From the NCBI RefSeq assembly GCF_001983935.1, contig NZ_CP017641.1, positions 5,365,001 through 5,429,000 of the forward strand: DNA of 64,000 bases, given 5' to 3'. Shown here piece after piece: positions 46,538 to 61,485 of this stretch. The notes beneath the pieces were generated by a model that saw only the letters and a program-made list of their open reading frames with translations, was not told the origin of the DNA and did no database searches. The stretch comes from Fuerstiella marisgermanici (GTDB taxonomy: Bacteria > Planctomycetota > Planctomycetia > Planctomycetales > Planctomycetaceae). Both the position numbers and the translations under genes were made by a program. Position 1 is the stretch's first letter. Every line of letters begins with the position of its first letter.

Positions 46538-48739
46538 TTGAAATTCAGGACCTTTCTCGGGTGGGCCGTGCTCGCCACGGTGCTGATCGTGCAGCGACCG
46601 CTCACGTCTACCAACCTTTGGTGGCACCTTTCGCGCGGTCGTGAGGTTGCCAGCGGGAGCTGGACGCCAAGCCAGGTGCTATTAACCCTGGACCACAGTT
46701 GCGAAGCCGACTGGTTGAGCGGCGTGCCGTTCTACTTCGGCTGGACCCTGGGCGGGGTGCATTTCCTCGCGATGGTCCCTCTGGCCGCATGCGCCGTGAT
46801 GCTAGTCCTGCTTAAGGGCAGTCTTTCCCACTGCAGGAACCTCTTTACGGCGGCCATGTTTCTGCCGCTTTTCCTGTGGTCCGCGCGAGGAGACCTGCAG
46901 CCTGTCCCTGCCGTTTTCGATCTTGTCTTTCTGGTATTCCTTTGGCTGCTAAGCAGTCGCTGGAAATCCAAACGGACGTTCGTCACGCTGATTTTCCTGA
47001 CCTTCGTCCCCTGGAGTAATCTGGGACCTCGGCCAATCGTTGGACTGCTGTGGTTGATGTGTTGCGATTGGCGACGTGTCACTGATCCGCCTGCTGGCCC
47101 ACTTGCTGTCGCATCAGACTCGGCTCCAACAGCATCGGCCTCTCACCAAACTCGTCGCTGGGTGATTCAGATTTTCGCAGCCGCTGTTGTCGGCGGATCG
47201 CTGACTCCGCGAGGACTTTTCACGTGGAGCGACGCCTGTGTTCTGCTATCCCCCACATCGTTTGTCAGCGTCGGCGAATACAGCGAGACATCGTGGCCAG
47301 GATTGTTTTCAAACCAGCCATGGACTGCCGCCGAATGGGCGTTCGTCCTTTTGTGGACCTTATGGGCTGGAAACCGGTTCCTGTGCAGGCAACAGCCTCC
47401 AGAGGCATCTGATGTGGACCGGCGGCCGCTGGCGCTGCGTCGCTATGTGGGATGCTGTGTGCCGTTAGTGCTGGTGATCCTTTCTCGCAGTAACCTTGCG
47501 ATCTGTGGCTTGTGGATCTGTCTTGATGCACTCAGCGCCACCGCCCGCGGCCCAAAAGAATCGCTCAACTGGCGTTTTTCAGGGAAACCGATACTTCTTC
47601 CAGCGGCCTTCGTAGTGGCCTTAGCGGCTATGATTGTCGATGCGAACGGTCGGGCACTGGCGTCCTATGGCCGACTGGGTTGGGGAATCTCGCAGGAGCT
47701 TGATCCGCGCCTTTTGGACATTTCGCTACGTCCCGACAAAGACGAGCCGGTGATCGGCTGGGCGGCCGACGGACGTTCCACCGGCATCGCCGCATGGCGT
47801 TATCCCGAAATGCAGTTGTGTGATCATCCTCAGCGAGCGTTGCTCGGAGGACGAGTCCGGGAACATTCGATGTTGATTGAAGATCTTCAGGGCGATCATC
47901 GAGCTCGCTACCGGCGCGACGACGGCACGTGGGGTGGCTGGGTGCAGAGACTGGCAGACTGGAAGGTGCAGCTCATGCTCGTTCCCGTTGAGATGCAACA
48001 GTTGAATCGAGACCTACAGAAAATTACCTGGCGGCCACTTGATCTGGATTCACCAACGGTGCCGTATGTCTCCACGGACGACCTTCGCTATTCCGATGCG
48101 ATTTTGGCGACAATGCAACAGGAATGGTTTGTGGAATCAGGTCCCTGGCAACCAACAGCAGAGATCTACTCCGGACAGGACTGGCGGTTCGACATCATCG
48201 GTGAAATTGGCGGCACCCCGGACCCGATACCTGCGATACGTCAAGCTCAGCGCTTTCGGGCAACCGGTATTCCGGTTGCGGCACTTCGAGCGCTCTTGCC
48301 GATACGCCACCATAACCATCACCCGGCCTTGATTGACGAGTTCAGAAAGTGCCAACTGGCCTTGGCGGACCAGGAATGGACAACATTCGGGCGGACGACG
48401 TTGTTTCGAAGGCTCATCGCAGAACGATTAAACCTGAAGCCTCAAATTCCCAACGGCATTGACGGTGAGACCACCGAGGATGCGACAGCACCATCAACAG
48501 ACGTCTGGGACAAATGTATCAAGCGATACATTGCCGGCGAGTTGACCGAAGCCATTCACGTATTGCAGGGTGGTACGCCGCAAGAGTACTTTGCAGCAGC
48601 GATGCTGTGGCTTGAGCTTGGAGAAACTTCACAAGCGTTAGCTGCCCTACAGCCTCTGCTGTCCGATCAACGGGATTTGAATCTGGCGATTGCTGCAAAG
48701 TTTTGGTCTGAACAAATGGCTCTGGATCAGGGACAATGA
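46538..48739 (+). CDS. Polytopic membrane protein with helical C-terminal region
   Basis: 733 residues from TTG 46538, supported by GGAGG (46525-46529) 8 nt upstream. N-terminal TNLWWHLSRGREV (about 25-37) just after the first helix, then about ten hydrophobic helices to ~370. A large soluble part follows (~380-733) with a helical, TPR-like end (ALQPLLSDQRDLNLAIAAKFWSEQMA). The layout resembles GT-C-type glycosyltransferases, whose first loop carries a conserved acidic/Trp-His motif, but the acidic residue is not obvious, so this is only a hint. The seven-haem cytochrome gene follows after 28 nt. Confidence 0.72.
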   Translation: MKFRTFLGWAVLATVLIVQRPLTSTNLWWHLSRGREVASGSWTPSQVLLTLDHSCEADWLSGVPFYFGWTLGGVHFLAMVPLAACAVMLVLLKGSLSHCRNLFTAAMFLPLFLWSARGDLQPVPAVFDLVFLVFLWLLSSRWKSKRTFVTLIFLTFVPWSNLGPRPIVGLLWLMCCDWRRVTDPPAGPLAVASDSAPTASASHQTRRWVIQIFAAAVVGGSLTPRGLFTWSDACVLLSPTSFVSVGEYSETSWPGLFSNQPWTAAEWAFVLLWTLWAGNRFLCRQQPPEASDVDRRPLALRRYVGCCVPLVLVILSRSNLAICGLWICLDALSATARGPKESLNWRFSGKPILLPAAFVVALAAMIVDANGRALASYGRLGWGISQELDPRLLDISLRPDKDEPVIGWAADGRSTGIAAWRYPEMQLCDHPQRALLGGRVREHSMLIEDLQGDHRARYRRDDGTWGGWVQRLADWKVQLMLVPVEMQQLNRDLQKITWRPLDLDSPTVPYVSTDDLRYSDAILATMQQEWFVESGPWQPTAEIYSGQDWRFDIIGEIGGTPDPIPAIRQAQRFRATGIPVAALRALLPIRHHNHHPALIDEFRKCQLALADQEWTTFGRTTLFRRLIAERLNLKPQIPNGIDGETTEDATAPSTDVWDKCIKRYIAGELTEAIHVLQGGTPQEYFAAAMLWLELGETSQALAALQPLLSDQRDLNLAIAAKFWSEQMALDQGQ

Positions 48740-48767
48740 CCCCGATTTTTCCTGACTGTAGTTCCGT

Positions 48768-49922
48768 ATGAATGAGATTCCTGCCAAACGTGTTTGGACC
48801 ACCATAGCAACGTCAATTATTGCGTTGCTGGGAGCGTTCGCAGTGTGGGCGTCGTTTAGCCACGAATTCACCACGCCGCCTCGCCCCGTGGTGCTCAGCC
48901 GACACTCGACAAATTCGCAGCACCGGTGCGCTGAATGTCATTCAGATATTACCGACCAATTCGCACAGGCACCGCATTCCCGAACGTTAAGCAGGGCGAC
49001 CGCGCCGGAGAATCAGGAAGCATTCGTCGGACGAACATTCCACAACGACCTGACAGACGTGTCCTATCACTACGAAGCCGGTAAAGACGGGATTGACATA
49101 ATCACGGACGCCTATTCACGCAAGGTTTCGGCTAAGTGGATCTTCGGATCAGGGACACACGCTCGCACACCGTTGATTACATGGACCGACCGCGACGGGA
49201 AGACTGCTGGAATCGAACACAGCGTTAGTTCGTATCCATCCGGCGAACTGGGGCTTACGCTGGGTGCCGAAGACCAGAAAGAAACAAGCGGAATCTACTG
49301 CCTGGGAGCCGTGCGAGGGCCGGCCGAAACGGTCAACTGCTTCGGCTGCCATTCGACTCATCTACCCGTTGAAGACGGACGCCTTGCGATGGACAGGATC
49401 GTACCGAACATCGGATGCGCCCGATGCCATTGGAACACGACAGAGCATGTTCATGAAATGGATGCTGATCTACCCACGACTATCGAACGTTTCTCTGAAC
49501 TTACCCCGGAACAGTCAGTCGATCGATGTGGGGAGTGCCATCGACGGACGGAGGAAATGGGAGCTGAGGTTTCCCCCGAAGACAAATCGCTGGGCCGTTT
49601 CGCGCCGGTGGGGCTCACACAAAGCCCATGCTTCCAACAGCAGGGCAGCGTCACACTATCATCTGGCGCACAGGCCCGCCTGGATTGCACCAGCTGCCAC
49701 AACCCGCACGGTCCGACGTCCCACGACTGGCGGGATCACGCCGCGGTCTGTTTGGATTGCCATGATGGGGCTCATGATCGAGCGGCCAACTGCCCGAAGG
49801 CCGCGCGAACAGACAACTGCCTTACGTGCCATATGCCCTCGGTCCCGGCAAACAAGCATCTGCATTTCACCGATCATTGGATCCGTATCCGAGACACGGA
49901 ACCGACTCCGGAAAACCAGTGA
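48768..49922 (+). CDS. Seven-haem c-type cytochrome, second copy
   Basis: 384 residues, N-terminal anchor/signal (TTIATSIIALLGAFAVWASF). Seven haem sites CAECH, CFGCH, CARCH, CGECH, CTSCH, CLDCH and CLTCH in the same order and similar spacing as the protein at 31229, plus shared KWIFGSGTHARTP (there QWLIGSGTHAQTP) and the C-terminal FTDHWIRIRD. Clearly a paralogue. Its partner here is a membrane protein rather than PSD1/DUF1501. Presumed periplasmic electron transfer or scavenging enzyme of the c554 type; substrate unknown. Confidence 0.92.
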   Translation: MNEIPAKRVWTTIATSIIALLGAFAVWASFSHEFTTPPRPVVLSRHSTNSQHRCAECHSDITDQFAQAPHSRTLSRATAPENQEAFVGRTFHNDLTDVSYHYEAGKDGIDIITDAYSRKVSAKWIFGSGTHARTPLITWTDRDGKTAGIEHSVSSYPSGELGLTLGAEDQKETSGIYCLGAVRGPAETVNCFGCHSTHLPVEDGRLAMDRIVPNIGCARCHWNTTEHVHEMDADLPTTIERFSELTPEQSVDRCGECHRRTEEMGAEVSPEDKSLGRFAPVGLTQSPCFQQQGSVTLSSGAQARLDCTSCHNPHGPTSHDWRDHAAVCLDCHDGAHDRAANCPKAARTDNCLTCHMPSVPANKHLHFTDHWIRIRDTEPTPENQ

Positions 49923-49991
49923 GATCCAGGCCGAAACCATCAACAGCCCCCCCCATACATGAGAGCAGTTTCCCTTTTGGTGTGGCCGGTT

Positions 49992-50064
49992 GGGCCTCGC
50001 GGGAAACAGGCTTCATCGTCCGAGACGCCTGTTCCGCGGCCACAAGTCAATGAGTTTCGCTGTA
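49992..50064 (+). repeat. Dispersed ~72-bp repeat, copy C
   Basis: GGGCCTCGCGGGAAACAGGC, then TTCCGCGGCCACAAGTCAAT and GAGTTTCGCTGTAG. Matches copies A and B. An internal inverted repeat ACAGGC/GCCTGT (50006-50011 with 50027-50032) adds a second hairpin. Its end encodes the last residues of the GNAT gene on the other strand. Confidence 0.65.
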
Positions 50065-50541
50065 GCCGGCACTGTCAACTCGTTTCACCATCGGGATACA
50101 CGCGAGTGAAATACCTCTTGGCGAATGATATTGACTGATTCGCTCACCGGTGAAGCCGCATTTGCGATAGAAGGCGGCCGCGTTAAGCGTTGAATCCAGA
50201 GACAGGTTTTCCAATCCGCAACGCGCAGCAATCTCCTGCAAGTGTCGCATCATTGCGGTGCCGATGCCGTGGCCCATTAAATCGGGGGACACGAACACAC
50301 CATCAATGTGGCCAGTAAGACAATCGATCACGCCCGTGCCGACAATGGCACGGGCCACAACCGCGACATGCCATTTGTCGACGACGGATTGAACAAACCG
50401 CTCGGTTGGAACACCATCGGTCCAAATTGCGACGTCCTTATCCGAGTAGTACCCAGCACACTGGGCGCGTATCGATGCGTTGCGAATTTCCCAGATCGAA
50501 ACCGCGTCTTTGGCAACGGCTTTACGAATCGTGACTTCCAT
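50047..50541 (-). CDS. GNAT-family N-acetyltransferase
   Basis: 164 residues. GNAT fold: N-terminal TIRKAVAKDAVSIWEIRNASI, acetyl-CoA loop VSPDLMGHGIGTAMMRHL (about 85-102, the Q/RxxGxG/A position) and the C-terminal SLDSTLNAAAFYRKCGF (about 115-131). Substrate unknown; probably a small amine or protein N-terminus. The last codons (AGYSETH, stop) come from the dispersed repeat copy C, so the C-terminus may have been remodelled by that element. 27 nt downstream of the aldehyde dehydrogenase gene's end. Confidence 0.88.
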   Translation of the reverse strand: MEVTIRKAVAKDAVSIWEIRNASIRAQCAGYYSDKDVAIWTDGVPTERFVQSVVDKWHVAVVARAIVGTGVIDCLTGHIDGVFVSPDLMGHGIGTAMMRHLQEIAARCGLENLSLDSTLNAAAFYRKCGFTGERISQYHSPRGISLACIPMVKRVDSAGYSETH

Positions 50542-50568
50542 TTCCGGTGCCAGTTTTTGCCTCGCGCA

Positions 50569-52071
50569 TCACAGCGGACGCACGATCGAAATTGGTCGCA
50601 GGTAATCGTTCAGCGTATCTGGTGAAACCACGCCGCCACCCATGCCACTCTTGCCGACACCGGCATACGGGACACCGTGCACGATGACGTTGTGAGCGTT
50701 GATCCAGCCGTTGCCTGATTCAAACGCTTCGGCCACGCGAGCACATCGCACGAGGTCACGTGACCAGACGCTGTTGCCGAGTCCGTATTCCGTGTTGTTC
50801 GCCAGGCGAATGCCTTCTTCTTCGTTGGCGAATGGAGCCAGATACGCGACCGGGCCGAAGATCTCTTCGCGAGCGGCAATGTTGTCCAGCGAACCAGCCA
50901 TCAACGCTGGCTTCACGTAATAGCCGTTCTTGCCCGCAACCTTGGCGGCTCCACCTTCAAGTACCAGTTCAGCTCCTTCGGCCACACCCTTTTCCAAATA
51001 CCCGAGAACTCGGTCACGCTGCTTGGTGTTCACGAGAGGTCCCATTTGAGTCCCCGCGTCAAGCTGATAGCCAATGCTGACGGCCTTCATTCGATCGGCA
51101 CATTCGCCGACGAATTTGTCGTAGATGTCCTTGTGGATCAGCCAACGCGTCGCATCACAACATACCTGCCCGCTGTGAAACGTAATCGCTCCGACCAGTT
51201 TTTCGGCCGTTTCTTCGATGTCCACATCATCGAACACAACCGCCGCTCCTTTGCCGCCGAGTTCGCATTTGATTGGCGTCAGATTCCGACCACTGGCTTC
51301 CGCCACCATGCGGCCAACTTCCGGCGATCCAGTGAAACTCATGCGACGAAACTTCGGGTTGTTGGCGATCGCCGCGCCCGCTGTTTCGCCGATGCCCGTC
51401 GTGACGTTCAACACGCCCGCCGGAAGCAGATCCAGTTCCTGCACAACCTTGCACAAGTACAACGCAGACAGCGGCGTGTCTTCGGCCGGTTTCAGAACGC
51501 ATGTATTACCAGCGGCAAGTGCGGGAGCCAGCCCCCACCCTGTTAGCAGAAAGGGGAAGTTCCACGGAACGATAAATCCGCACGCGCCCCACGGGTGACG
51601 AGCGATCCAGGCTTCGTGGCCTTTGACGCCGATCACGCTGCGGTAATTGACCTGCTGCGCGAGGTCAGCGAAGTAGCGGAACGTGTCGATGAAATTTTGC
51701 ACGTCGGCTTCGGCCTGAGCGAACACTTTGCCGCAGTCCAGCGATTCAATCTGCGAAAACTGAGCCTTGCGAGCTTCGACGGCATCGGCGAGTCGGTGCA
51801 AAGCAGCGCTGCGTTCGTTGACTGGCATTTTCGCCCAACCGCTGCCTTCGAACGCATTCACCGCCGCGTCAACCGCGCGATCGACATCGTCTTTCTGAAG
51901 GCTGGCGACGGTTGTGATTTTCTGCCCCGTGCCCGGATCGACAACGTCAAACGTTTGGCCACCGGATGCGTCAATCCATTCTCCATTGACGAAGGCTTTC
52001 AGCGACGGCGAATCCAAAAATGCGGCAACTTCGGGAAGCAGGTCTGAAGTGGGTGCAATGGTGGTAGACAT
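50569..52071 (-). CDS. NAD(P)-dependent aldehyde dehydrogenase
   Basis: 500 residues, full-length ALDH superfamily. Seen: FIVPWNFPFLLTGWGLAPALAAGN (cofactor and substrate groove, about 165-188), FTGSPEVG (about 242-249, nucleotide loop), catalytic Glu in ELGGKG (about 266-271) and catalytic Cys in GQVCCDATR (about 300-308), EIFGPV (about 403-408). Closest in pattern to betaine-aldehyde/aminoaldehyde or aldehyde dehydrogenases of the ALDH1/2/9 group. Cytosolic. Likely co-transcribed with the acetyltransferase 27 nt downstream. Confidence 0.92.
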   Translation of the reverse strand: MSTTIAPTSDLLPEVAAFLDSPSLKAFVNGEWIDASGGQTFDVVDPGTGQKITTVASLQKDDVDRAVDAAVNAFEGSGWAKMPVNERSAALHRLADAVEARKAQFSQIESLDCGKVFAQAEADVQNFIDTFRYFADLAQQVNYRSVIGVKGHEAWIARHPWGACGFIVPWNFPFLLTGWGLAPALAAGNTCVLKPAEDTPLSALYLCKVVQELDLLPAGVLNVTTGIGETAGAAIANNPKFRRMSFTGSPEVGRMVAEASGRNLTPIKCELGGKGAAVVFDDVDIEETAEKLVGAITFHSGQVCCDATRWLIHKDIYDKFVGECADRMKAVSIGYQLDAGTQMGPLVNTKQRDRVLGYLEKGVAEGAELVLEGGAAKVAGKNGYYVKPALMAGSLDNIAAREEIFGPVAYLAPFANEEEGIRLANNTEYGLGNSVWSRDLVRCARVAEAFESGNGWINAHNVIVHGVPYAGVGKSGMGGGVVSPDTLNDYLRPISIVRPL

Positions 52072-52621
52072 TTGAGTTCCTTAAACGTGGCCGTGAATGG
52101 GGCGAGTATGCCGTTCGTGGCGAACAGCGTTCCTCAAAATAAGATACGATTTCGCATCTACAATTCCAAGCCGGTACGGCCCGGCGGGCGATTAGCCTGG
52201 CCGATTGAGTCGCGAGACAACCGCACCGTGTTTTTACCGCCAATCGCGGCATGCGTGTCAGCATTGTTCCCGTTGGCTGCTGGCCGCGTTCCATGGCGAC
52301 GGTGCCCACGCCGACACGACGGCCGGACGGGCAAATCGGAGAGGGTGAACATGGAGACAGAGAATGCGACGGCCGAGCTCCCGGCGTCGGCGGCAGCAGC
52401 GAATCCAAGACGACCACCGTGGACGGTGACACCACAACCACCATTTATGCGTTCACAAGCACCGTCTCGCCGGCAACCGCCAGCGAGGCCAGGCAAAGGG
52501 AACATGGCTGACGGCAACTCGGCTTCTGGTGGCGAGTCCGAGACACCAAAGCCGAACGAATTCGGTTCGCGGTTCACGGCGTCGTCCGCAATCACCGTCA
52601 CCATCACCACCTCAATTTGCC
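52072..52621. other. Region without a convincing gene
   Basis: 550 bp upstream of the aldehyde dehydrogenase gene, with overlapping open frames on both strands, all low-complexity (Thr/Ala/Arg-rich) and without ribosome sites or recognisable products. It separates the aldehyde dehydrogenase from the four-gene cluster and may hold the dehydrogenase promoter. Confidence 0.45.
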
Positions 52622-53707
52622 TCACTTTTCCGTTTCGTACAGACTAGTCTTGAGGAGATAGTCTATGTGGGAAATGGGGTTCTCGTTGAACGACCGATCC
52701 ACGAAATTCTCGTTTCTAAGCACGCTCAGGCGATTCCTCATACCAGCTTCTATACCCCAGACTCCCTTTTCACCAGGTACGGCTACTCCGATGATGGTTG
52801 CATCAATGCCCTCTTGTTTGATGACGCCCTTGAATTCGTCCAGCCGTGCCTCTTTTACCGAAGCAATGATTTGCCAGTCGCCCCAGAATAGAAAGAGATT
52901 CTTCGGGTCCAGGTCATGTTGGGTAGCTTCCCTGTGCACACAGTCTGGTATCTGCGAATCATCCAGCCACAACTCGATCCCAACATTTGAACGCTCAATA
53001 ATATTCCAAAGTGAACCCATAACTCCATCAGAGTTATCCGTTGCTGAGCTTAACACTCTTGCTCTCCGAAGTATCTGCATTTGGCGGATTTGTGGCTCAG
53101 GCCTTACAACGGCGTCGCGTTCAGCGCTACTCAAAAGGTCTATATTACCCAGTCGCGATGCTTTCAGATAGCTCGCTATAAAGTAACCGTTGCGTCCGAT
53201 CGACACTATCTTGTCACCGGGTTGACATGTGCTTCTGCCAACCTGTTCAGACTGCGGGATCGTGCCAATAGCTGTCCCATGACAAGCAAAGCGAGGAGCA
53301 ACGCGAATGTTCCCTCCAGCGTTTTTAAGTGAAAACGCCGTGCACGCTGCATCGAGGCCCTCAAAGTACTCTTCGAATTCTTTGACCGGCATGTCCGCCG
53401 GTGCCTCAACAGATGTAGTTAGTGCTACGGGACTGGCTCCAGCCGCAGCGAGATCACTGGCGTTTGCAAGAACAGTGTACCAACCCCAAGTTCGATATGA
53501 CTCATAACCAAGTGCCCATGCGAGTGGCTTGGGGCCTACGTCTGTCGTAACAACGAGTTTCTGTTCTGCTGAGTCGAGGCTCAGAAATGCACAATCGTCG
53601 CCCAACTCCATGCCTGCAGAACCTCGTCGCAAGATTGGCAAGACAAGCTCATTCAAGAGTCTGAATTCGCCCCAATCTCGCAATGTGTCATGCTCGCGAT
53701 TATTCAT
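52622..53707 (-). CDS. ThiL/AIR-synthase-like ATP-binding protein
   Basis: 361 residues from ATG 53707, which overlaps the stop of the kinase gene by 8 nt. PurM/ThiL superfamily: Mg/phosphate site GMELGDDCAFLSL (about 32-44), VVTTDVG (about 52-58), VLANASDLAAAGASPVAL (about 77-94, the ThiL NlSDlaAMGA-like helix), and SATDNSDGVMGSLWNI (about 234-249, the dvSDGL motif). Thiamine-monophosphate kinase is the nearest named relative, but no thiamine gene is near and the four-gene setting suggests another phosphorylation. Last gene of the HIT, deaminase-like, APH-like run. The frame is open to 53881. Confidence 0.72.
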   Translation of the reverse strand: MNNREHDTLRDWGEFRLLNELVLPILRRGSAGMELGDDCAFLSLDSAEQKLVVTTDVGPKPLAWALGYESYRTWGWYTVLANASDLAAAGASPVALTTSVEAPADMPVKEFEEYFEGLDAACTAFSLKNAGGNIRVAPRFACHGTAIGTIPQSEQVGRSTCQPGDKIVSIGRNGYFIASYLKASRLGNIDLLSSAERDAVVRPEPQIRQMQILRRARVLSSATDNSDGVMGSLWNIIERSNVGIELWLDDSQIPDCVHREATQHDLDPKNLFLFWGDWQIIASVKEARLDEFKGVIKQEGIDATIIGVAVPGEKGVWGIEAGMRNRLSVLRNENFVDRSFNENPISHIDYLLKTSLYETEK

Positions 53708-54983
53708 GGTGTGGGAGAACTTTCTCAGAAATGTATCTGGCCAACTGAAGGACGTGAAGTTGCGTCGAGATATGGGAGTAGAAATCATCGCTATGTTTAA
53801 GCAGCCCCATGGCCACAATGAACATTGGAATGATGTACTCGTTATCCCAATTCGTGTCGGTGGGAAAGGCTTTTTTCGCACGACTCCGCACCTGAGAGAT
53901 GAGTTGAACGCGGTGTCGTAGTCCTTCGGTTTCGAATTCCGGTTCGTGATCGTCGAATCCTAACCAGTCGGACAGCTTCAGAATCTCTGAATATGGCATT
54001 GCCGAGGCTAACGTCACGTACCTCAAATTACATTCCATGAGCACGAAGTCTTTTGCGATGTGGGCATCTCCATCGGCCCACCCGAAGTCAATGATTCGAG
54101 GGCCATCCTGCGCAAACACGATGTTCTTGGGGTGTAGGTCGCCATGGACGCCTCCACAGTACATTCTGATCTCAATTGCAGAGATACGTTTGAGGACACG
54201 AAATGGATTCGGCCAGTCGATCCCAAACATCTGCGTGGTTTTTACCGTTGCGTCGCCCCAGCAAGACCGCCAGTGATTTGACCAGTCTGCCGTGTCGATT
54301 TTTCGCAGATACCGATTGTACTCTCCGAATACGCTCTTCAAGGATGGCCCAGCCGTTCCACCTCGATGATGGAGTGGCCACAGATAGTCAAAAGCCTTAT
54401 CCAGCGCATTGGAAATCTCGTCAACGGCTTTCGAATTGTTTGTCAAACCCTTCCAAACATCGTCGATTCGAAGGTTCAACGTTTGCTGGTAGGCTTCGAC
54501 TCCCCAAATGCCACCTGCGGATGCGAATGGAGACCAAAGGACCGTAAACGGCTGAGAGTCCCCGTGTTTGTGGCAGACAAGTGGCGTGGCAAAACCGCAA
54601 GGCGACAAAGCGATGTAGTTTGAGACTGACTGGTAATCGTCATACTCTTTATGGCACGAATCGCGTTCACGCGTTGGCTTGGCAAACTTCACAATCAACG
54701 GATGAGACGGCCATCTTTCCCCACTTGGACGAAAGTAGGCGACGAATACTGATGCGCTACTTTTTCCTTCATCAGCACCCAAGCGGTTTAATGGAACCAA
54801 ACGCAACACGACGTCATTCTTGTCAACTCCTTCGATAGTTGGCCAAATCAGTTTGCGCAGGTTGTCGTCAGAAGTGCCATTACCGGTCAATTGATCGAGC
54901 AGTGCGGACGCTGACTGTCGCACGCTCTTTTCTGCGTCGGAGCTGAGAACGTCAAACTCAATGTCTTTCATGCCATCACTCAC
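53700..54983 (-). CDS. Aminoglycoside-phosphotransferase-fold kinase
   Basis: 427 residues from a GTG at 54983 that overlaps the previous stop (GTGA); ATG 54971 is an alternative. The catalytic half is clear: GGVHGDLHPKNIVF (about 272-285, Brenner loop HGDLHxxN) and RIIDFGWADGDAHIAKDF (about 290-307, metal-binding DFG-like motif). The N-lobe shows VLRLVPLNRLG and PLIVKFA (about 95-101) with the ATP-binding Lys. The 'DFGWA...HIAKDF' pattern resembles APH-like kinases seen in NTPase-linked conflict systems (TCAD9-type), but I cannot confirm membership. Substrate unknown. Confidence 0.68.
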   Translation of the reverse strand: MSDGMKDIEFDVLSSDAEKSVRQSASALLDQLTGNGTSDDNLRKLIWPTIEGVDKNDVVLRLVPLNRLGADEGKSSASVFVAYFRPSGERWPSHPLIVKFAKPTRERDSCHKEYDDYQSVSNYIALSPCGFATPLVCHKHGDSQPFTVLWSPFASAGGIWGVEAYQQTLNLRIDDVWKGLTNNSKAVDEISNALDKAFDYLWPLHHRGGTAGPSLKSVFGEYNRYLRKIDTADWSNHWRSCWGDATVKTTQMFGIDWPNPFRVLKRISAIEIRMYCGGVHGDLHPKNIVFAQDGPRIIDFGWADGDAHIAKDFVLMECNLRYVTLASAMPYSEILKLSDWLGFDDHEPEFETEGLRHRVQLISQVRSRAKKAFPTDTNWDNEYIIPMFIVAMGLLKHSDDFYSHISTQLHVLQLARYISEKVLPHHE

Positions 54984-55585
54984 TTCTTACGCTGCTCGCT
55001 GGCACTCTGAAAAATCGAAATAGACGCGAATTCCTCAAACAAGGCTGGACCAAACGGAGTAGGAAGACTCTCGTAAACGCTATTGGCGAGACGCGTCTTG
55101 CCGCTTGCAGCCTCCACATTTGCGAGTAGCAGGTGACATATGGGCAGGCCTGCACGCAATCGGACTGGATTCGGGTTGTGAGAAGTGATCTCGAAAGTCA
55201 GCTCGCAGGAAGCATCTTTGCCAAATCCCGGAGAGACAAGATGCGAGTCGGAGGTAACCGAGATCCCAAACCGAGATATATGAGAAAGTGTCGTAATGAC
55301 TCCCAAAAGTCCATCGGTAAGGCCGATCCGTTCGTGAGAATTGACGAGCAGCAGTTCTCCTCTGTTAACAGTGATTTCAGAAAAAGTCTCGATGGGACCA
55401 AGCACGCTTTCGCTGCAGTTGTTAGACCACACGTCGATCGCCTTATCCGATTTGGCCCATCGACGAACTTTATGCCCCAGCCGTAAAACGTAACTGACTG
55501 GCTTAAGTAATTCACGATCGAACGGCTCAATCAGAAGTGCAGACTCAGACCGCTTCGCTGTGATCTGCTCTGCATTAAGAAACAC
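54980..55585 (-). CDS. dCTP-deaminase/dUTPase-superfamily protein
   Basis: 201 residues from a GTG at 55585 with GAGG 7 nt upstream; the start overlaps the HIT gene by 11 nt. Start pattern FLNAEQI...LIEPFDRELLKPVSYVLRLG is that of dCTP deaminases (PaSyDlRLG). SHISRFG (about 101-107) keeps the Ser and Arg equivalent to Ser111 and Arg115 of E. coli Dcd, and CELTFEITSHNPNPVRLRAGLPICHLLL (about 127-154) keeps the catalytic Glu138 equivalent. The usual DPGW is SPGF. Could deaminate dCTP, hydrolyse dUTP or act on a modified nucleotide. Confidence 0.72.
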   Translation of the reverse strand: MFLNAEQITAKRSESALLIEPFDRELLKPVSYVLRLGHKVRRWAKSDKAIDVWSNNCSESVLGPIETFSEITVNRGELLLVNSHERIGLTDGLLGVITTLSHISRFGISVTSDSHLVSPGFGKDASCELTFEITSHNPNPVRLRAGLPICHLLLANVEAASGKTRLANSVYESLPTPFGPALFEEFASISIFQSASEQRKK

Positions 55586-56249
55586 CTGAAAACCTCAATT
55601 CTTTGTAAGCGGATTGAAGGTCGTGTTCTGGCGAATCGTATTCACGCCAATCCCACGGTCGTTGAACGTCAAATATCTCGGCCAGCTTGCGCCGAACATA
55701 TTGGGAACCAATGTTGTGCGTAGACAGTGATTGCTCCCCAATTGACGAGATTTTGCCAAGGGTGTCACGAATTAAGATGTAATTCCCGCCGTCTCGGTGG
55801 AATGCCCAAGCGTCAAGGAGAGACTCGTGCGTGTGATGGCCAAACGGAAAAAGCAAAGGAGCTGAAAGGGAATCGGGTAACGGAACGAAATGAACATGGC
55901 AGTGATATATTCCGCATCCAGCCCCGCTACACGCTCTCGCCCCGTGTTCAAATAAGAGGTAGTGTTCCGGCGCTCCACAACCATTCCACAATCGCTCAAC
56001 AACAGCAGAGAAATCATCAAGCTCGGCGGAGTTAAGGTCAGCAAATCGTTCAACATGCCGATGCGGCAGTATCAGGAAACTGTTTGGGAAAAGCTGTCCA
56101 ATGGTCGGCCAAACAACTAACGCACCGGATTCGAGAGCCGTCCGATCCAAAAATTCGGGACCATATATTTTTCGAAACCGCGAGTCTGAAGCTCCGGACA
56201 GTTCCTCGCAGAACTCGCACGAATCTGAGTTGATGTTTAGCGCTTCCAC
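55575..56249 (-). CDS. HIT-family protein with N-terminal CxxC
   Basis: 224 residues from a GTG at 56249 with AAGGA about 8 nt upstream; the frame is open to 56354. N-terminal SCEFCEEL (about 8-15) is the zinc-binding start common in HIT proteins. PNSFLILPHRHVERFADL (about 51-68) precedes the HIT triad, here YHCHVHFVPL (about 111-120). HIT enzymes hydrolyse or transfer nucleoside monophosphates (AMP-X, Ap4A, galactose-1-P uridylyl). The C-terminal ~100 residues are not typical. First gene of the four-gene run, whose products probably act in sequence on one nucleotide-linked substrate. Confidence 0.72.
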   Translation of the reverse strand: MEALNINSDSCEFCEELSGASDSRFRKIYGPEFLDRTALESGALVVWPTIGQLFPNSFLILPHRHVERFADLNSAELDDFSAVVERLWNGCGAPEHYLLFEHGARACSGAGCGIYHCHVHFVPLPDSLSAPLLFPFGHHTHESLLDAWAFHRDGGNYILIRDTLGKISSIGEQSLSTHNIGSQYVRRKLAEIFDVQRPWDWREYDSPEHDLQSAYKELRFSGVS

Positions 56250-56772
56250 TTTTCCTATCCTTGCCTCAAGTCTGCAGAACTGGTTCCGAGGCGACTGATT
56301 GTCGCGATGTGTCGACGGAAACCAGAAACGAATTGTACCCAATTCCGTCATCACCTGCGACGTTGATCGCTGGGTAGCTGTGTGGTGACCAAGTCATTTG
56401 GCAGGAAAGAAATGCTTCGATTTTCTTGCGCACCGTCACGGCCACTGGCAATCTGGCCACGCTCTGCCGCTTCTGTCAAAGCCCGCGTTCAGCGGTTGTG
56501 TTCTTTCGAAAGTGGAGCGACCCAAATGCTTGCCGTTCTCGAAGATGGACGTTGCCGAAACATTAATGGGCAGAGCCCGAGCTGTGAACTTTGCGGCTTG
56601 GTGAATGTTCACAGAATGGCAAAGACAACCGACAAACCGAAGCAGGGTCGCACCGGTTTTCCAACCAATGACGTGCAGCGGTGAAAGCAAGGAAGTCAGG
56701 CGGGAGCCTGACCTACGGCTACTGAGGGTGACTGTCCACCGCTTCATCATGCACAGGCTGACCTACGTTGAC
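56250..56772. other. Intergenic region upstream of the four-gene cluster
   Basis: 523 bp between the HIT gene start and the end of the hydroxylase gene, both on the minus strand. It should carry the promoter of the four-gene cluster. I see no gene and no clear -35/-10 pair. Two overlapping plus-strand frames of 70-100 codons have no ribosome site or recognisable product. Confidence 0.4.
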
Positions 56773-57876
56773 TTATACGGCCGACGCCTCCTGACGCACG
56801 GTCGAAGGTCGGACTTCTTCCTGGCGTTTCAGCCAGTTGCGGCCGACTGGCGTGTCGTTGTAAGCCTTCCGAAGAGCTGCCAGCGCGTTTCGTTCTTCGG
56901 GCGACAGGCATGGGTGCCATGCGTTAAAGAACAGCACGATGCGAAGTTCGTCGCTGTCGTTCCAGACGTCGTGGACGAACGAATCGTCGAACACCAGAAT
57001 TTTGCCTTCCTGCCATTCAACCTTTTCGCCGCCCACCTGTAGCCCGCAACCTTGTGGAACAAACAGAGGCAAGTGGCATCGCAGAATTCCGTTAAGCGGC
57101 CCCACGTGCGGCGGGATATGAGCATGAGGATTTAGAGCAGACAGCATCGTCAGCTCGCCTTCTTCGTACTGGAGCATGTCGTCCGCAATTTTCGCCAACG
57201 CGGGCGCTCGTTCGCAGTTCGATTTTTGGCGGCGGCCGTTCACGTAGAAAATAAACGTGTTCCACCCGTCGACGAAGTTTTCAAAGTCGGTACGGAACAT
57301 CCCAAATTCGTCGCGGTGCACGTTCAGCAGTTCCGCGACTTCCTGGCGAGCCGCTGCGAAGCTGGCTTCCAGTTGAGGCGTCCATTCGAAGTTGGCCGGA
57401 TCGTAGAATCGGTTTGGCGGAATGCCTGGCACGAAGTACTGCGGCTGCTGCAGTGGATGAGTGAATTCAGTCGCCTGCCACTTGCCCTGACGGAAGAATG
57501 GATCCAGAAACGCGCCGCGATAAAACATGGCCTCCAGGCAGTTGCGAAATTTCAGCTCACGGCAACCGTTGCGAAACGTGGGATGAGCGTCCAGAGCGGC
57601 CGCGGCCAGAGCAAGTCGCCGAGCTTCAGCGTACGTGAATGTCCAAACCAGCTGCGACCACGCTTTGGCCATCGGATGACTGTGATGGCGACCGAAGAAT
57701 CCCCAGCTTCGATGCAGCAACCAAACGGCGATGGCAAAAAAACGATGGTTAAACGACACAACGCGCGCCACCATTCGGCGAACGATTGCGGGAAACACGA
57801 ATGGCGAACCGTCAATACCGTATTCGTCGTGAGACGCTTTCAGCAGGTCTTCGATTGTCGTTTCGTCAGCAGACAT
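56773..57876 (-). CDS. Aspartyl/asparaginyl beta-hydroxylase family protein
   Basis: 367 residues. The C-terminal half is the AspH/LpxO-like Fe(II)/2-oxoglutarate domain: HIPPHVGPLNGILRCHLPLF (about 253-272; HxxPHxGxxNxxLRxHL), GGEKVEWQEGKILVFDDSFVHDVWN (about 282-306, second iron His and the FDDSFxHxxWN motif). The N-terminal ~140 residues have a hydrophobic stretch (about 34-56) that may anchor or pack. Relatives hydroxylate Asp/Asn in proteins or lipid A acyl chains. Transcribed alone toward the cluster. Confidence 0.88.
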   Translation of the reverse strand: MSADETTIEDLLKASHDEYGIDGSPFVFPAIVRRMVARVVSFNHRFFAIAVWLLHRSWGFFGRHHSHPMAKAWSQLVWTFTYAEARRLALAAAALDAHPTFRNGCRELKFRNCLEAMFYRGAFLDPFFRQGKWQATEFTHPLQQPQYFVPGIPPNRFYDPANFEWTPQLEASFAAARQEVAELLNVHRDEFGMFRTDFENFVDGWNTFIFYVNGRRQKSNCERAPALAKIADDMLQYEEGELTMLSALNPHAHIPPHVGPLNGILRCHLPLFVPQGCGLQVGGEKVEWQEGKILVFDDSFVHDVWNDSDELRIVLFFNAWHPCLSPEERNALAALRKAYNDTPVGRNWLKRQEEVRPSTVRQEASAV

Positions 57877-58099
57877 GCGGTGGTCAAGAGAGTCAGGTTT
57901 CGAGCGAATTCGTGTGCATTTTGCGGCGAAGCAATGGCAACCGCCAATGAAAAAATGCGGGCTGCCTTTCGAATCGGTCGGAGTCCCGCGGCTGCACTGT
58001 TAAAAAATGGTCCGAAAGAATCTAAGCTGCCGCCTCGAACGTCCCAAACAGCGTCTGACGAACGCAGACTATGATTCCTCAAAGCCGGCAGCACAATTC

Positions 58100-58636
58100 A
58101 TGAAGGTACTGATCACCGAACACGAAATCCGCGATCGTGTGACCGAATTGGGGCAGACGCTAAGCGAAACGTACGCGGGACGTCCACTCACGATTCTGGG
58201 TGTGCTGACCGGCAGCATCGTGCTGCTGGCAGACCTGATTCGAGCGACCTCGGTGCCGTTGCGAGTCGCCCTCATTCAGGCGGCAAGTTACGGCGGTACG
58301 CGGACAACGGCTGGTGAGCTGACAATTAACAGTGCTCTTGTCCCCGACCTTCGCGGTCGCGACGTAGTCATTCTGGACGACATCTTCGACACCGGCAACA
58401 CGATGGTCGGAATGCTGGAAGCGGTGCAGGAATTTGAGCCCCAGAGTATTCGGTCGGCCGTGTTGTTGTGGAAGACGGATCGCACTGTCGTGGATGTCGA
58501 ACCGGATATCTACGGGTTTAAGATTCCCGATGAGTTTGTGGTCGGATACGGTCTGGACTACAACGACGAATATCGCCATCTGCCATATATCGGTGTGATG
58601 GAAGAGGAAGACTTGAAACACGCGAGCGGGAATTAA
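58100..58636 (+). CDS. hpt: Hypoxanthine phosphoribosyltransferase
   Basis: 178 residues from ATG 58100 (the frame is open to 58007). Salvages hypoxanthine/guanine with PRPP. PRPP-binding motif VVILDDIFDTGNTM (about 89-102), N-terminal GVLTGSIVLLADLIR (about 34-48) and C-terminal VVGYGLDYNDEYRHLPYIGV (about 152-171) all match Hpt. Size is normal. Stand-alone gene, divergent from the hydroxylase gene. Confidence 0.93.
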   Translation: MKVLITEHEIRDRVTELGQTLSETYAGRPLTILGVLTGSIVLLADLIRATSVPLRVALIQAASYGGTRTTAGELTINSALVPDLRGRDVVILDDIFDTGNTMVGMLEAVQEFEPQSIRSAVLLWKTDRTVVDVEPDIYGFKIPDEFVVGYGLDYNDEYRHLPYIGVMEEEDLKHASGN

Positions 58637-58728
58637 ACCGAGGTCCTCGCACGGCTGGGAAACTTCTAGCGCCTGATCTGCAACCAGGGCTGGATGTTTC
58701 GATCAGGATTGAATAACCGGACACAAAC

Positions 58729-60090
58729 ATGCAACGACGCAATCGCACAACCTCACGAATTCTATCCTGCCTGCTGTGCCTCATCACCGCCTCTGTGGCA
58801 GCCGCCGATCGCAAGCCGAACGTTATTCTGATTCTGGCCGACGACCTGGGCAGCGTCGACCTGAATTGCTACGGAGCCAACGACCTGGCAACTCCAAACC
58901 TGGACGCCCTGGCCGATCGCGGTATCCGGTTCACTCAGTTCTATGCGGCTGCTCCCGTGTGTTCGCCTTCGCGAGCCGCCTTTATCACCGGCCAGTACCC
59001 TCAACGAGCAGGTGTGCCGGGCAACGTTTCATCGAAGGCTGGCAACACGGGAATGCCGGTGGCGACGCAGACGGTCGCCGAACTTTTTGGAGCAAACGGT
59101 TACGTGGCGGGGCACGTTGGGAAGTGGCATCTTGGCTACACGCCCGCCACGATGCCCAGCGGCCAGGGCTTTGTAGAAACGTTCGGCCACATGGGCGGGT
59201 GCATCGATAATTACTCGCACTTCTTCTATTGGAACGGCCCCAATCGCCACGACCTGTGGCGCAATGGCAAGGAAGTGTTTCACGATGGCGAGTACTTTCC
59301 GGACCTGATGGCGAACGACGCGATTCGATTTATCGAACAACACCGCGAACAGCCCTTCATGCTGTACTGGGCATTAAACACGCCTCACTATCCACTGCAG
59401 GGAACCGACAAGTGGCGGAAGCACTACGCCGACCTCGACGCACCCCGAAAAATGTACGCGGCCTTCGTATCGACCACGGATGAGATCATCGGTCGCTTGC
59501 TGGCAAAGCTGGACGAACTGAAAATGCGTGAGAACACGATCGTCGTGTTTCAGTCGGATCACGGCCACAGCACAGAAGAACGCACGTTCGGCGGCGGCGG
59601 TTCAGCCGGACCTTATCGAGGTGCGAAGTTCAGTTTGTTTGAAGGTGGCATTCGAGTTCCCGCGATGGTTTCGTGGCCGGGCCACATCCCGCAGAAATCA
59701 GTGCGGCACCAGATGGCAACCGGCTGCGATTGGCTGCCGACTCTGGTTTCTCTTTGCGACCTGGACGCCGGCCAGCGTAAGTTCGACGGGAAAGATATCT
59801 CATCCGTGCTAAAGTCGGCTGACGCGCCGTCGCCTCATAAAGTCTTCCATTGGGAATCCGGGGGCGGCAAAAACAACCGACAATGGGCGGTACGAAAAGG
59901 CGACTGGAAGCTGATCGGAAACCCGAACGACACAAGCAACAAGGCAGCGTTGACGCAAAACGACCGACGTTTTCTGGTGAACCTGAGCGATTCTGTTCAC
60001 GAGCTGGAGAACACCGCTGCACAACATCCGGAGATCGTGAAGGAACTGGAACAGCTTCATGACGACTGGATCAAAAATGTCACTCAATGA
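58729..60090 (+). CDS. Secreted arylsulfatase-type sulfatase
   Basis: 453 residues with signal peptide (to about VAAA, residue 26). Sulfatase signatures: NVILILADDLG (metal Asp38/Asp39), formylglycine motif CSPSRAAFITGQYPQR with Cys78, GHVGKWHLGY (about 119-128) and FQSDHGHSTEERTFGGGGSAGPYRGAKFSLFEGGIRVP (about 276-313). Typical of planctomycete arylsulfatases acting on sulfated polysaccharides. The stop overlaps the next gene by 14 nt, linking it to a GT39-like membrane protein. Confidence 0.92.
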   Translation: MQRRNRTTSRILSCLLCLITASVAAADRKPNVILILADDLGSVDLNCYGANDLATPNLDALADRGIRFTQFYAAAPVCSPSRAAFITGQYPQRAGVPGNVSSKAGNTGMPVATQTVAELFGANGYVAGHVGKWHLGYTPATMPSGQGFVETFGHMGGCIDNYSHFFYWNGPNRHDLWRNGKEVFHDGEYFPDLMANDAIRFIEQHREQPFMLYWALNTPHYPLQGTDKWRKHYADLDAPRKMYAAFVSTTDEIIGRLLAKLDELKMRENTIVVFQSDHGHSTEERTFGGGGSAGPYRGAKFSLFEGGIRVPAMVSWPGHIPQKSVRHQMATGCDWLPTLVSLCDLDAGQRKFDGKDISSVLKSADAPSPHKVFHWESGGGKNNRQWAVRKGDWKLIGNPNDTSNKAALTQNDRRFLVNLSDSVHELENTAAQHPEIVKELEQLHDDWIKNVTQ

Positions 60091-61420
60091 AGATGAAGCT
60101 GCCGCTGCGATGGCGGCGAAGTGGAAGCCGCTGATCGCCGCGCTGATCATTGTCGCTCTTGTGCTGCGCATCATGGCGGCGATTCTGGTCGAACGTCACG
60201 TACAAAACGCCGGGCGACCGTTCTTGATTGAAGGCGATGCCAATGGCTATTGGGAGCTGGCTCAAAAAATCGCGACGGGACAGGACTACGCCATTCATCA
60301 GCCGCCGCGCTATGTTTTACGGATGCCCGGCTTTCCGTTGTTGCTGGCAGCTTCCATCCGAATCTTCGGCGACAATGTGTTTGCGGCTCGAATTGTGCTT
60401 GCCGTTGTCGGCACGGCCTGCTGCTGGCTGACGTATCGCCTGGGAAGTTTGGTCCACATGCGCCGCACCGGTTTTTGGGCGGCCATGTTTGTCACCATCA
60501 ATCCGCTGCACATCGGCAATAGCGTTCTGGTCCTCTCCGAATCGTGGTTCACGTTTTGGATGCTGTTAAGTCTGCTCGCACTGGTGAAACTGGTTGATCG
60601 ATTTTCTGCTCCGAAAAAATTGCCAGAGAATGCCGACGCTGCTCCCGCTGTGCCTTCGCTGGGGCCATTAGTCACGCAGTCCTGTTGGGCCGGAATACTG
60701 ATCGGCGGTGCAGTGCTGGTCCGTCCCGGATTTCTGCCGTGGCTCGCCTTGGCGGCTTGTGGCGTGCTGTTTTTGCTGCGGCGAACGGTAGCGATTCGCA
60801 GTTTGTCGGCGGGCTGTATGGTGGCGGGCTGTTTTGTCGTACTGTTCCCGTGGGCCGCGCGAAATGCGGCCGTGACCGATCATTGGGTTTTCACGTCGCT
60901 CTGGTCGGGTCCCAGCTTGTACGACGGCTGGAATCCTGACGCCACAGGTGCCAGCGACATGCGGTTTTTCGACGACGAGCAGGTGATGGCCAAACAGGGC
61001 CTGTCGGAATTTGAGATGAATGAGCACTACAAACAGCGAGCGTTCGCGTTCGCCACATCCAATCCCGGCCGAGTGCTGGAACTGGCGGCCATCAAAGCGG
61101 GCAAGTTTCTGAGCCCGGCACCTAACGCAACAAAGCAGGCGGGATGGGTAATCGAGGCCGCCTTCGTGGCAGTCTGGGCAACTTTGGCGGTGCTGGCGAT
61201 CGCTGGTCTCGTGAGTCGCCAGTGGGACGGTGTTGGAATTTTAGTGACCGTGGGGCCACTGCTGCTGTTTTTGCTGGTTCATATGGTCTTCGTTGGCTCA
61301 GTCAGGTATCGTTTGCCGGTGGAGTTTCCCTTGTCCGTGCTGGCCGCCATCGGATGGCGTTGGTTGGTACTGAAACGAGGAGGTTCTGCCGGGAATTCGT
61401 CGCCGACTTCCCCTGCTTGA
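60077..61420 (+). CDS. GT39/ArnT-like membrane glycosyltransferase
   Basis: 447 residues from ATG 60077, inside the sulfatase 3' end. About ten to eleven hydrophobic helices. The first loop after helix 1 carries EGDANGYWELAQKIATG (about 54-70) with the acidic residue expected for GT-C enzymes, then PPRYVLRMPGFPLLLA and INPLHIGNSVLVLSESWFTF (about 141-160). The pattern is that of Pmt/ArnT-family enzymes that transfer sugars from polyprenyl phosphates at the outer face of the membrane. Coupling with a sulfatase suggests a surface glycan role (inference). Confidence 0.78.
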   Translation: MSLNEDEAAAAMAAKWKPLIAALIIVALVLRIMAAILVERHVQNAGRPFLIEGDANGYWELAQKIATGQDYAIHQPPRYVLRMPGFPLLLAASIRIFGDNVFAARIVLAVVGTACCWLTYRLGSLVHMRRTGFWAAMFVTINPLHIGNSVLVLSESWFTFWMLLSLLALVKLVDRFSAPKKLPENADAAPAVPSLGPLVTQSCWAGILIGGAVLVRPGFLPWLALAACGVLFLLRRTVAIRSLSAGCMVAGCFVVLFPWAARNAAVTDHWVFTSLWSGPSLYDGWNPDATGASDMRFFDDEQVMAKQGLSEFEMNEHYKQRAFAFATSNPGRVLELAAIKAGKFLSPAPNATKQAGWVIEAAFVAVWATLAVLAIAGLVSRQWDGVGILVTVGPLLLFLLVHMVFVGSVRYRLPVEFPLSVLAAIGWRWLVLKRGGSAGNSSPTSPA

Positions 61421-61485
61421 AGCACGACGCGCGGCAGAGTACACGCAACACCGCTGATTTGGCGGACGATCTTCGGCATGGATGC

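What the first reader, a model, noticed from the sequence alone, without database searches (positions are those of the whole stretch)
52622..56249. Overlapping four-gene cluster: HIT + dCTP-deaminase-like + APH-like kinase + ThiL-like, possibly an undescribed nucleotide system
Seen: four minus-strand genes each overlap the next (11, 4 and 8 nt), three start with GTG, and the DNA looks lower in GC than its surroundings (one line counted by eye: 48%, versus 57% for a line in the GH57 gene). Each product keeps its family's key residues: HIT HxHxH, Dcd-type Ser/Arg/Glu, HGDLHxxN plus DFG, and ThiL GDD and NSDG. Known: dCTP deaminases and kinases of this fold appear in antiviral conflict systems, and HIT proteins cut nucleotide phosphoramidates. 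Inference: the four act on one nucleotide-linked substrate, either a defence pathway that alters the dNTP pool or a small nucleoside biosynthesis.
Basis: partly seen in the sequence, partly recalled or inferred. Interest (0 to 1): 0.8.

Follow-up and report, generated by a model that had tools for sequence, protein, structure and literature searches.

The report
Mobile four-gene nucleotide-processing operon
Four tightly overlapping genes for two kinases, a dCTP-deaminase-like enzyme and a HIT hydrolase travel together between bacteria as one unit and resemble parts of operons suspected of fighting viruses by altering DNA building blocks; the exact job is not yet known.

Summary
Four minus-strand genes overlap by 11, 4 and 8 nt at 52622-56249. 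Their GC is 50.4%, against 56.5-57% on the flanks, the lowest 3.6-kb stretch of the window. The same four genes, in the same order and with the same three overlaps, occur in one genome of another family (G333), 70-81% identical in amino acids, under purifying selection (dN/dS 0.10-0.13), near a weak integrase match and a reverse transcriptase. Seven same-genus genomes keep the neighbouring ALDH gene but lack the kinase. So this is a real, horizontally moving operon. It is rare: the same two genomes in draws of 392 (phylum) and 397 (class).

None of the four is a housekeeping orthologue: the genome has separate ThiL and Dcd genes, and the cassette copies score below those families' cut-offs. 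The kinase is TCAD9-type. Its two other relatives found sit between HMUDK_hel and MazG_C genes, a slot where a third genome has a DCD-family gene. HIT relatives sit beside DCD, dGTPase-like, ThyX or ThiL-like genes. A nucleotide-modifying conflict module is the best reading (0.45). No direct defence evidence exists and a metabolite pathway stays open. New variant of a known kind.

The parts
55575..56249 (-). HIT-superfamily hydrolase/transferase, 224 aa (GTG start). Belongs to a subfamily with an EHG motif before HxHxH and a C-terminal extension with conserved Y, Q..R and a D between aromatic residues
   Evidence: PF01230 19.8 bits for the 259-aa reading, just under the cut-off of 21.5; profile of 8 relatives matches 45 distinct PDB sequences of the HIT superfamily, incl. 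HINT, FHIT, GalT, CWF19L1
54980..55585 (-). dCTP-deaminase/dUTPase-fold protein, 201 aa (GTG start); Ser101, Arg105 and Glu132 kept
   Evidence: PF22769 9.3e-20; TIGR02274 82.8 bits, cut-off 92.8
53700..54983 (-). TCAD9/APH-fold kinase, 427 aa (GTG start); K99, E113, HGDLHPKN (D282, N287) and DFG (D299) kept, so probably active
   Evidence: (PF19974 8.6e-21)
52622..53707 (-). ThiL-like AIRS-fold kinase, 361 aa (ATG start); GGN-I-R where ThiL has GGD, W-G-D where most ThiL rows have G-[ED]-D, plus a C-terminal extension
   Evidence: (TIGR01379 157.2 bits, cut-off 184.15)
56250..56498 (-). leader upstream of the HIT gene, homologous to the leader of the G333 cassette; one copy in G000 apart from one 30-nt weak match, one copy in G333

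Best explanation
A horizontally acquired four-gene operon whose products act one after another on a pyrimidine deoxynucleotide, most likely as a phage-conflict module of the nucleotide-modification type. Proposed mechanism (inferred): the DCD-like protein deaminates dCTP or a modified dCTP to a dUTP-type product. The TCAD9 kinase phosphorylates a hydroxyl on that nucleotide or its relative. The ThiL-like kinase adds a second phosphate to the phosphomonoester, as ThiL does to thiamine phosphate. The HIT protein hydrolyses or transfers the nucleotidyl group. The result would be an abnormal or depleted nucleotide pool that harms phage replication. Shown here: operon structure, transfer between families, purifying selection, kept active-site motifs, non-housekeeping status, and a recurring nucleotide-operon context of the relatives. 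Inferred: substrate, order of steps, defence role.
For: Same four-gene unit with identical overlaps in G333. dN/dS 0.10-0.13 for each gene, and DNA homology limited to the unit and its leader. The G333 copy lies near an integrase-like gene (weak match) and an RT. No kinase match in 7 of 7 same-genus genomes, which all keep the ALDH neighbour. Low GC in both hosts. The other two kinase relatives found among 397 class genomes lie between HMUDK_hel and MazG_C genes; in G492 that slot holds a DCD-family gene. In G538 the operon is followed by ThsB-type TIR and Nmad2 genes. HIT relatives lie beside DCD (two Streptomyces plasmids), a dGTPase-like plus a ThiL-like gene (G029) and near Thy1 (Parabacteroides). 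PMC13092281 (passages seen) reports a 5-hydroxymethyluracil kinase and a thymidylate synthase among newly validated defence domains, and predicts aGPT-Pplase, MazG, MazG-C and a dUTPase.
Against: No PADLOC match for HIT, DCD or ThiL-like at E<=1, and only weak kinase-motif matches for the kinase. The five scanned window neighbours are not a defence island: GNAT, aldehyde dehydrogenase, Asp hydroxylase, phosphoribosyltransferase (weak ShosT match, 9.4e-05), sulfatase. The full set is known in only two genomes. The own genome has no HMUDK_hel. Rhizobium and Streptomyces HIT relatives lie with cysteine-desulfurase-like genes, in Rhizobium also with phosphoribosyl genes, which fits a metabolite pathway as well. 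Of seven searches of phage and viral collections six gave no relative; the seventh, with the DCD-like protein, gave dCTP deaminases in 35 phage records (33 of haloarchaeal viruses), which says nothing about defence.
Confidence: 0.45

Rival explanations
1. dNTP-depletion immunity: the DCD-like enzyme, switched on by infection, drains dCTP, and the kinases and HIT protein regulate it or complete the degradation.
For: DCD keeps its catalytic Ser/Arg/Glu. A HIT relative is paired with a dGTPase-like gene in G029 (PADLOC dGTPase 1.3e-45; below NCBIfam cut-offs). The idea follows known nucleotide-depletion immunity (recalled).
Against: No known trigger or sensor part. The known anti-phage dCTP deaminases are, as I recall, of the zinc-dependent cytidine-deaminase fold, not this one, and PADLOC gives no match to the DCD-like protein. 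It leaves two kinases unexplained.
Confidence: 0.22
2. A small metabolic pathway that makes a modified nucleoside or coenzyme-like compound; the two kinases build a pyrophosphate and HIT acts as a nucleotidyl transferase.
For: ThiL-like and APH-type kinases suit phosphorylation of small molecules. HIT relatives occur with PRPP-synthetase-like, Glycos_transf_3 and (by eye) cysteine-desulfurase-like genes in Rhizobium, and near an aminotransferase-V gene annotated cysteine desulfurase in Streptomyces.
Against: No group-transfer enzyme, exporter or resistance gene in the unit. It sits near mobile-type genes in G333, and kinase relatives sit in HMUDK_hel/MazG_C operons.
Confidence: 0.2
3. Nucleotide house-cleaning or salvage: the unit removes damaged or non-standard nucleotides.
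For: HIT, DCD and the MazG of related operons belong to families with clean-up enzymes (recalled).
Against: Rare distribution, no kinase in same-genus genomes; two kinases do not fit removal.
Confidence: 0.1

Closest known systems
HMUDK_hel - MazG_C operons (thymine-hypermodification-like, PF18723/PF18722)
   Same: Kinase relatives (33-35% identity to P0002) in G538 and G742 lie between these two genes; a DCD-family gene fills the slot in G492
   Different: The window cassette has neither HMUDK_hel nor MazG_C, and adds HIT and ThiL-like genes
TCAD9 domain of vWA-MoxR-VMAP ternary conflict systems (PF19974)
   Same: Kinase C-terminal part (249-395) matches with 75 bits, cut-off 40
   Different: Only model positions 269-428 of 429 match; no vWA, MoxR or VMAP gene among the five neighbours scanned
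Thiamine-phosphate kinase ThiL (TIGR01379)
   Same: AIRS fold with both domains, GDD, TTD and SDG motifs
   Different: Below the equivalog cut-off; GGD replaced by GGN; the genome has its own ThiL
dCTP deaminase Dcd (TIGR02274)
   Same: Same fold family, catalytic Ser/Arg/Glu kept
   Different: 82.8 bits, below the cut-off of 92.8; the genome has its own Dcd over the cut-off; a four-residue insert before the Glu132 region against five other rows
HIT hydrolases (HINT, FHIT, GalT, CWF19L1)
   Same: HxHxH active site
   Different: EHG motif and a C-terminal extension shared by the 8 proteins aligned; the window protein scores 19.8 bits, just below the Pfam cut-off of 21.5

Membership tests
ThiL thiamine-phosphate kinase | NCBIfam equivalog score over 184.15 bits | tested here: not met
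   157.2 bits; housekeeping copy at 240.7
ThiL thiamine-phosphate kinase | GGD motif of the AIRS N-domain | tested here: not met
   GGN in 3 of 3 cassette-type proteins, GGD in 5 of 5 others aligned
dCTP deaminase Dcd | NCBIfam equivalog score over 92.8 bits | tested here: not met
   82.8 bits
DCD superfamily (PF22769) | score over cut-off and catalytic Ser/Arg/Glu | tested here: met
   71.7 bits against 27; S101, R105, E132 invariant in 7 of 7 aligned
TCAD9 (PF19974) | score over cut-off 40 | tested here: met
   75 bits, C-terminal part of the model only
vWA-MoxR-VMAP ternary system | vWA, MoxR and VMAP genes beside it | tested here: not met
   The five window neighbours scanned are GNAT, Aldedh, Asp_Arg_Hydrox, Pribosyltran, Sulfatase
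HIT superfamily | HxHxH motif | tested here: met
   H151, H153, H155 in the window protein; H153 and H155 in 8 of 8 and H151 in 7 of 8 aligned
HIT superfamily | Pfam HIT (PF01230) score over 21.5 | tested here: not met
   19.8 bits; the Parabacteroides relative scores 29.0
HMUDK_hel/MazG_C nucleotide-modification operon | HMUDK_hel and MazG_C present | tested here: not met
   no HMUDK_hel in G000; no MazG_C in the four genes
Known anti-phage systems | PADLOC model match | tested here: not met
   0 families for HIT, DCD, ThiL-like at E<=1; kinase 4 weak motif matches at 0.019-0.049
Known anti-phage systems | protection against phage | not testable with these tools
   needs plaque assays

The most novel reading that the evidence does not exclude
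A two-kinase nucleotide-activation pathway of bacterial immunity. An APH-fold TCAD9 kinase and a ThiL-derived kinase would build a pyrophosphate on a deoxyuridine-type nucleotide supplied by the DCD-like enzyme, by the chemistry that thiamine synthesis uses, and a HIT enzyme would consume it. This would be a cellular parallel of phage thymine hypermodification, with ThiL-family and TCAD9 proteins as new parts.
Probability: 0.12. Interest if true: 0.82.

Novelty: new variant of a known kind. Interest (0 to 1): 0.5.

Why it matters
If confirmed, it would extend nucleotide-based immunity to a ThiL-derived kinase and a HIT hydrolase. It would also give TCAD9 proteins, so far named as domains associated with other conflict systems, a small-molecule kinase role. 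The unit is compact (3.6 kb, four genes), so a laboratory test is easy.

Tried and rejected
Housekeeping thiamine or dCTP metabolism: rejected, because the genome has its own ThiL and Dcd over the curated cut-offs and the cassette copies fall below them.

Chance overlap of unrelated genes: rejected, because of identical overlaps and purifying selection in G333.

Spread in other phyla: two genome-contig scans and four viral-contig scans matched patterns but confirmed no relative. These scans rely on short peptide patterns, so they are weak evidence of absence. Plasmid tblastn of the window kinase gave only two Streptomyces protein kinases over 16% of the query; the G538 kinase gave none.

ThiL-like hits on plasmids: 7 records, 5 of them annotated thiamine-phosphate kinase. 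I fetched five (Micromonospora, Nonomuraea, Parabacteroides, Bernardetia, Salinirubellus). No HIT, DCD or kinase of the cassette type is annotated beside them, but three were fetched with only 600 nt of flank, and the Nonomuraea stretch carries a single annotation and its frames were not read. The other two of the seven were not fetched.

Thymidylate-synthase-like gene upstream of HMUDK_hel: of four such genes scanned, two have weak Pfam matches below the cut-off and two have none; a profile of the four found nothing in the PDB. So this naming is unsure and I do not build on it.

Rfam search of 52000-57000: no match at the gathering score. Promoter-like and terminator-like sites are fewer than the shuffled mean. 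The repeat search listed no clear repeats flanking the unit. The two leaders were folded without a shuffled control, so the energies say nothing.

G733 carries a HIT relative at a contig end, and the G173 contig is only 3,870 nt; their neighbourhoods are cut. In G690 the ALDH gene starts 223 nt from the contig end, so the cassette side is not seen there.
Full report
Observation. Translation gives four open frames on the minus strand with overlaps of 11, 4 and 8 nt. GC over the four genes is 50.4%, the minimum among windows of that length in the 64 kb, and third-position GC is 0.48-0.56 against 0.58-0.67 in the five neighbouring genes.

Conservation as a unit. A tblastn-type search of 392 genomes of the phylum with the kinase gave 17 genomes at E<=1e-3, but only G000 and G333 are full-length; the other 15 are short kinase-motif matches. 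G333 belongs to another family of the same class. It has all four genes in the same order, at 70.4% (HIT), 77.1% (DCD), 77.1% (kinase) and 81.4% (ThiL-like) identity, dN/dS 0.13, 0.10, 0.11 and 0.12, and the same three overlaps. DNA homology between the two places, searched over window 48001-62000, runs from 52629 to 56498, that is the four genes plus a leader of about 250 nt, and not into the other genes. The leader occurs once in G000, apart from one 30-nt weak match, and in 1 of 7 other genomes searched, G333, once. In G333 the unit lies about 0.6 kb from an integrase-like gene (Phage_integrase 0.0057, 16.9 bits, below its cut-off of 27.1) and about 2.2 kb from a reverse transcriptase (RVT_1 4e-12) (group II-type match below its cut-off; PADLOC RT 1.5e-23). 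Seven of seven same-genus genomes have the ALDH gene (79-85% identity). The stretches of 9-19 kb read around it contain none of the four genes (in G690 the cassette side is cut by the contig end), and the same seven have no kinase match at E<=1e-6 anywhere. So the unit is a sporadic, horizontally acquired one.

Not housekeeping. G000 has a ThiL at 240.7 bits (cut-off 184.15) and a Dcd at 110 bits (cut-off 92.8) elsewhere. The cassette proteins reach 157.2 and 82.8 bits. In an alignment of eight, the cassette-type ThiL proteins (window, G333, G029) read GGN where five others read GGD. A tree puts these three together against the five others (support 89/92), but branches are long and the sample is small. 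The DCD-like protein keeps Ser101, Arg105 and Glu132. The kinase catalytic residues are the same in 4 of 4 aligned relatives.

Context of the kinase family. A profile of the two cassette kinases searched in 397 class genomes gave four hits at E<=1e-6: G000, G333, G538 and G742. In G538 and G742 the kinase lies between a HMUDK_hel gene (E 2.6e-107 and 3e-115) and a MazG_C gene. HMUDK_hel itself occurs in 11 of 387 class genomes, at 12 places (G742 is not among the listed hits, so it was evidently not in that draw). MazG_C follows it at 10 of these 12: directly at 8, after a DCD-family gene at one (G492, PF22769 5.7e-15), after the kinase at one (G538). One place (G423) has no MazG_C and looks like a phage-type set (HMUDK_HMUD1 7.6e-24, thymidylate synthase 3.7e-23), and one is cut by the contig end. 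So TCAD9-type kinase and DCD-type protein occupy the same slot in related operons. This is the strongest link between two of the four cassette proteins outside the cassette, but it rests on three loci. In G538 the operon runs on into ThsB-type TIR and Nmad2 genes.

Context of the HIT subfamily. Besides the window and G333 I found nine members: two similar Streptomyces plasmid loci, Parabacteroides, Rhizobium and Caulobacter (all 5 records with a match), G029 and G173 (E<1e-30; 217 of 392 genomes matched at E<=1e-3, the rest much weaker and not examined), G576 and G733 (4 of 397 genomes at E<=1e-12, including G000 and G333). Neighbours: DCD in Streptomyces; AAA, Thy1 and a gene annotated dihydrofolate reductase in Parabacteroides; ThiL-like (TIGR01379 128.4 bits, below its cut-off), a 271-aa unknown and a dGTPase-like gene in G029; a TM protein and an 800-850 aa protein in Caulobacter, G173 and G576 (in Caulobacter the latter has a weak PRA-PH match; the G173 one has no Pfam match; the G576 one was not scanned). 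In Rhizobium there are PRPP-synthetase-like and Glycos_transf_3 genes, with a thymidylate-kinase-like and a cysteine-desulfurase-like gene named by eye. G733 is uninformative. All four cassette genes together: 2 of 11; HIT with DCD: 4 of 11; HIT with ThiL-like: 3 of 11; HIT with kinase: 2 of 11.

Function. A HIT enzyme, a DCD-fold enzyme, and two ATP-dependent kinases whose relatives recur with deoxynucleotide enzymes most simply act on a pyrimidine deoxynucleotide. That phage conflict is the purpose rests on analogy. PMC13092281 (passages seen; not read in full) lists a 5-hydroxymethyluracil kinase and a thymidylate synthase among newly validated defence domains, and predicts aGPT-Pplase, MazG, MazG-C and a dUTPase. 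PMC7159879 (passages seen) notes a few active APH-type kinases in vWA-MoxR systems that might act on small molecules; the word TCAD does not occur in its main text. PMC10910872 (one passage) names TCAD9 as associated with vWA-MoxR-VMAP. Against: no PADLOC match for three proteins and only weak ones for the kinase, ordinary flanks in the window (one weak ShosT match of the phosphoribosyltransferase, E 9.4e-05), and metabolite-like neighbourhoods of some HIT relatives.

In print. Searches with the terms TCAD9 (4 papers, 2 listed), dCTP deaminase + HIT family + operon + conflict + kinase (0 papers), HIT domain / dCTP deaminase / thiamine monophosphate kinase / gene neighborhood, three of four (0 papers), ternary complex associated domain, thymine pyrophosphorylase / MazG, 5-hmdU DNA kinase, nucleotide modification associated domain, dCTP deaminase + phage + defense + dGTPase (5 papers) and aGPT-Pplase / HMUDK / MazG-C (10 papers) listed no paper whose title or shown abstract start describes this set. 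Searches show only the top 10-12 of many papers, and only open-licence papers are held, so this is not proof. Statements about ThiL chemistry, phage thymine hypermodification and zinc-type anti-phage deaminases are recalled.

Verdict. The unit is a rare, horizontally moving nucleotide-type operon, a new variant of a known kind, with defence the likeliest single purpose but unproven.

Noticed in passing
window 56250-56498; L027 3260-3510: A leader of about 250 nt upstream of the HIT gene is conserved between the two cassettes and essentially single-copy in each genome; best block 79% identical over 85 nt
   Followed up: partly
L027 5488-6834 and 6771-8294: Reverse transcriptase (RVT_1; weak group II and defence-RT model matches) overlapping a 507-aa gene without Pfam match, close to the cassette in G333; possibly a separate RT defence system
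   Followed up: partly
L067 4297-10890: G029: ThiL-like (GGN type), 271-aa unknown, HIT, dGTPase-like gene, next to an RtcR/CARF sigma-54 regulator and, by eye, an HsdR-like helicase
   Followed up: partly
L116 455-1363: DCD-family gene between HMUDK_hel and MazG_C in G492
   Followed up: yes
L068 182-3829, L086 4129-7943, L034 7992-11648: HIT - small membrane protein - 800-850 aa protein operon in two genomes of the phylum and a Caulobacter plasmid; the large protein has little or no Pfam match in the two scanned
   Followed up: partly
L033 3188-11344: Rhizobium plasmid cluster with PRPP-synthetase-like, cysteine-desulfurase-like, HIT, Glycos_transf_3, methyltransferase and PhyH-like genes (several named by eye), looks like nucleoside biosynthesis
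   Followed up: partly
L032 4346-8639: Parabacteroides thymidylate synthase ThyX, AAA ATPase and HIT gene in a row, with a gene annotated dihydrofolate reductase nearby
   Followed up: no
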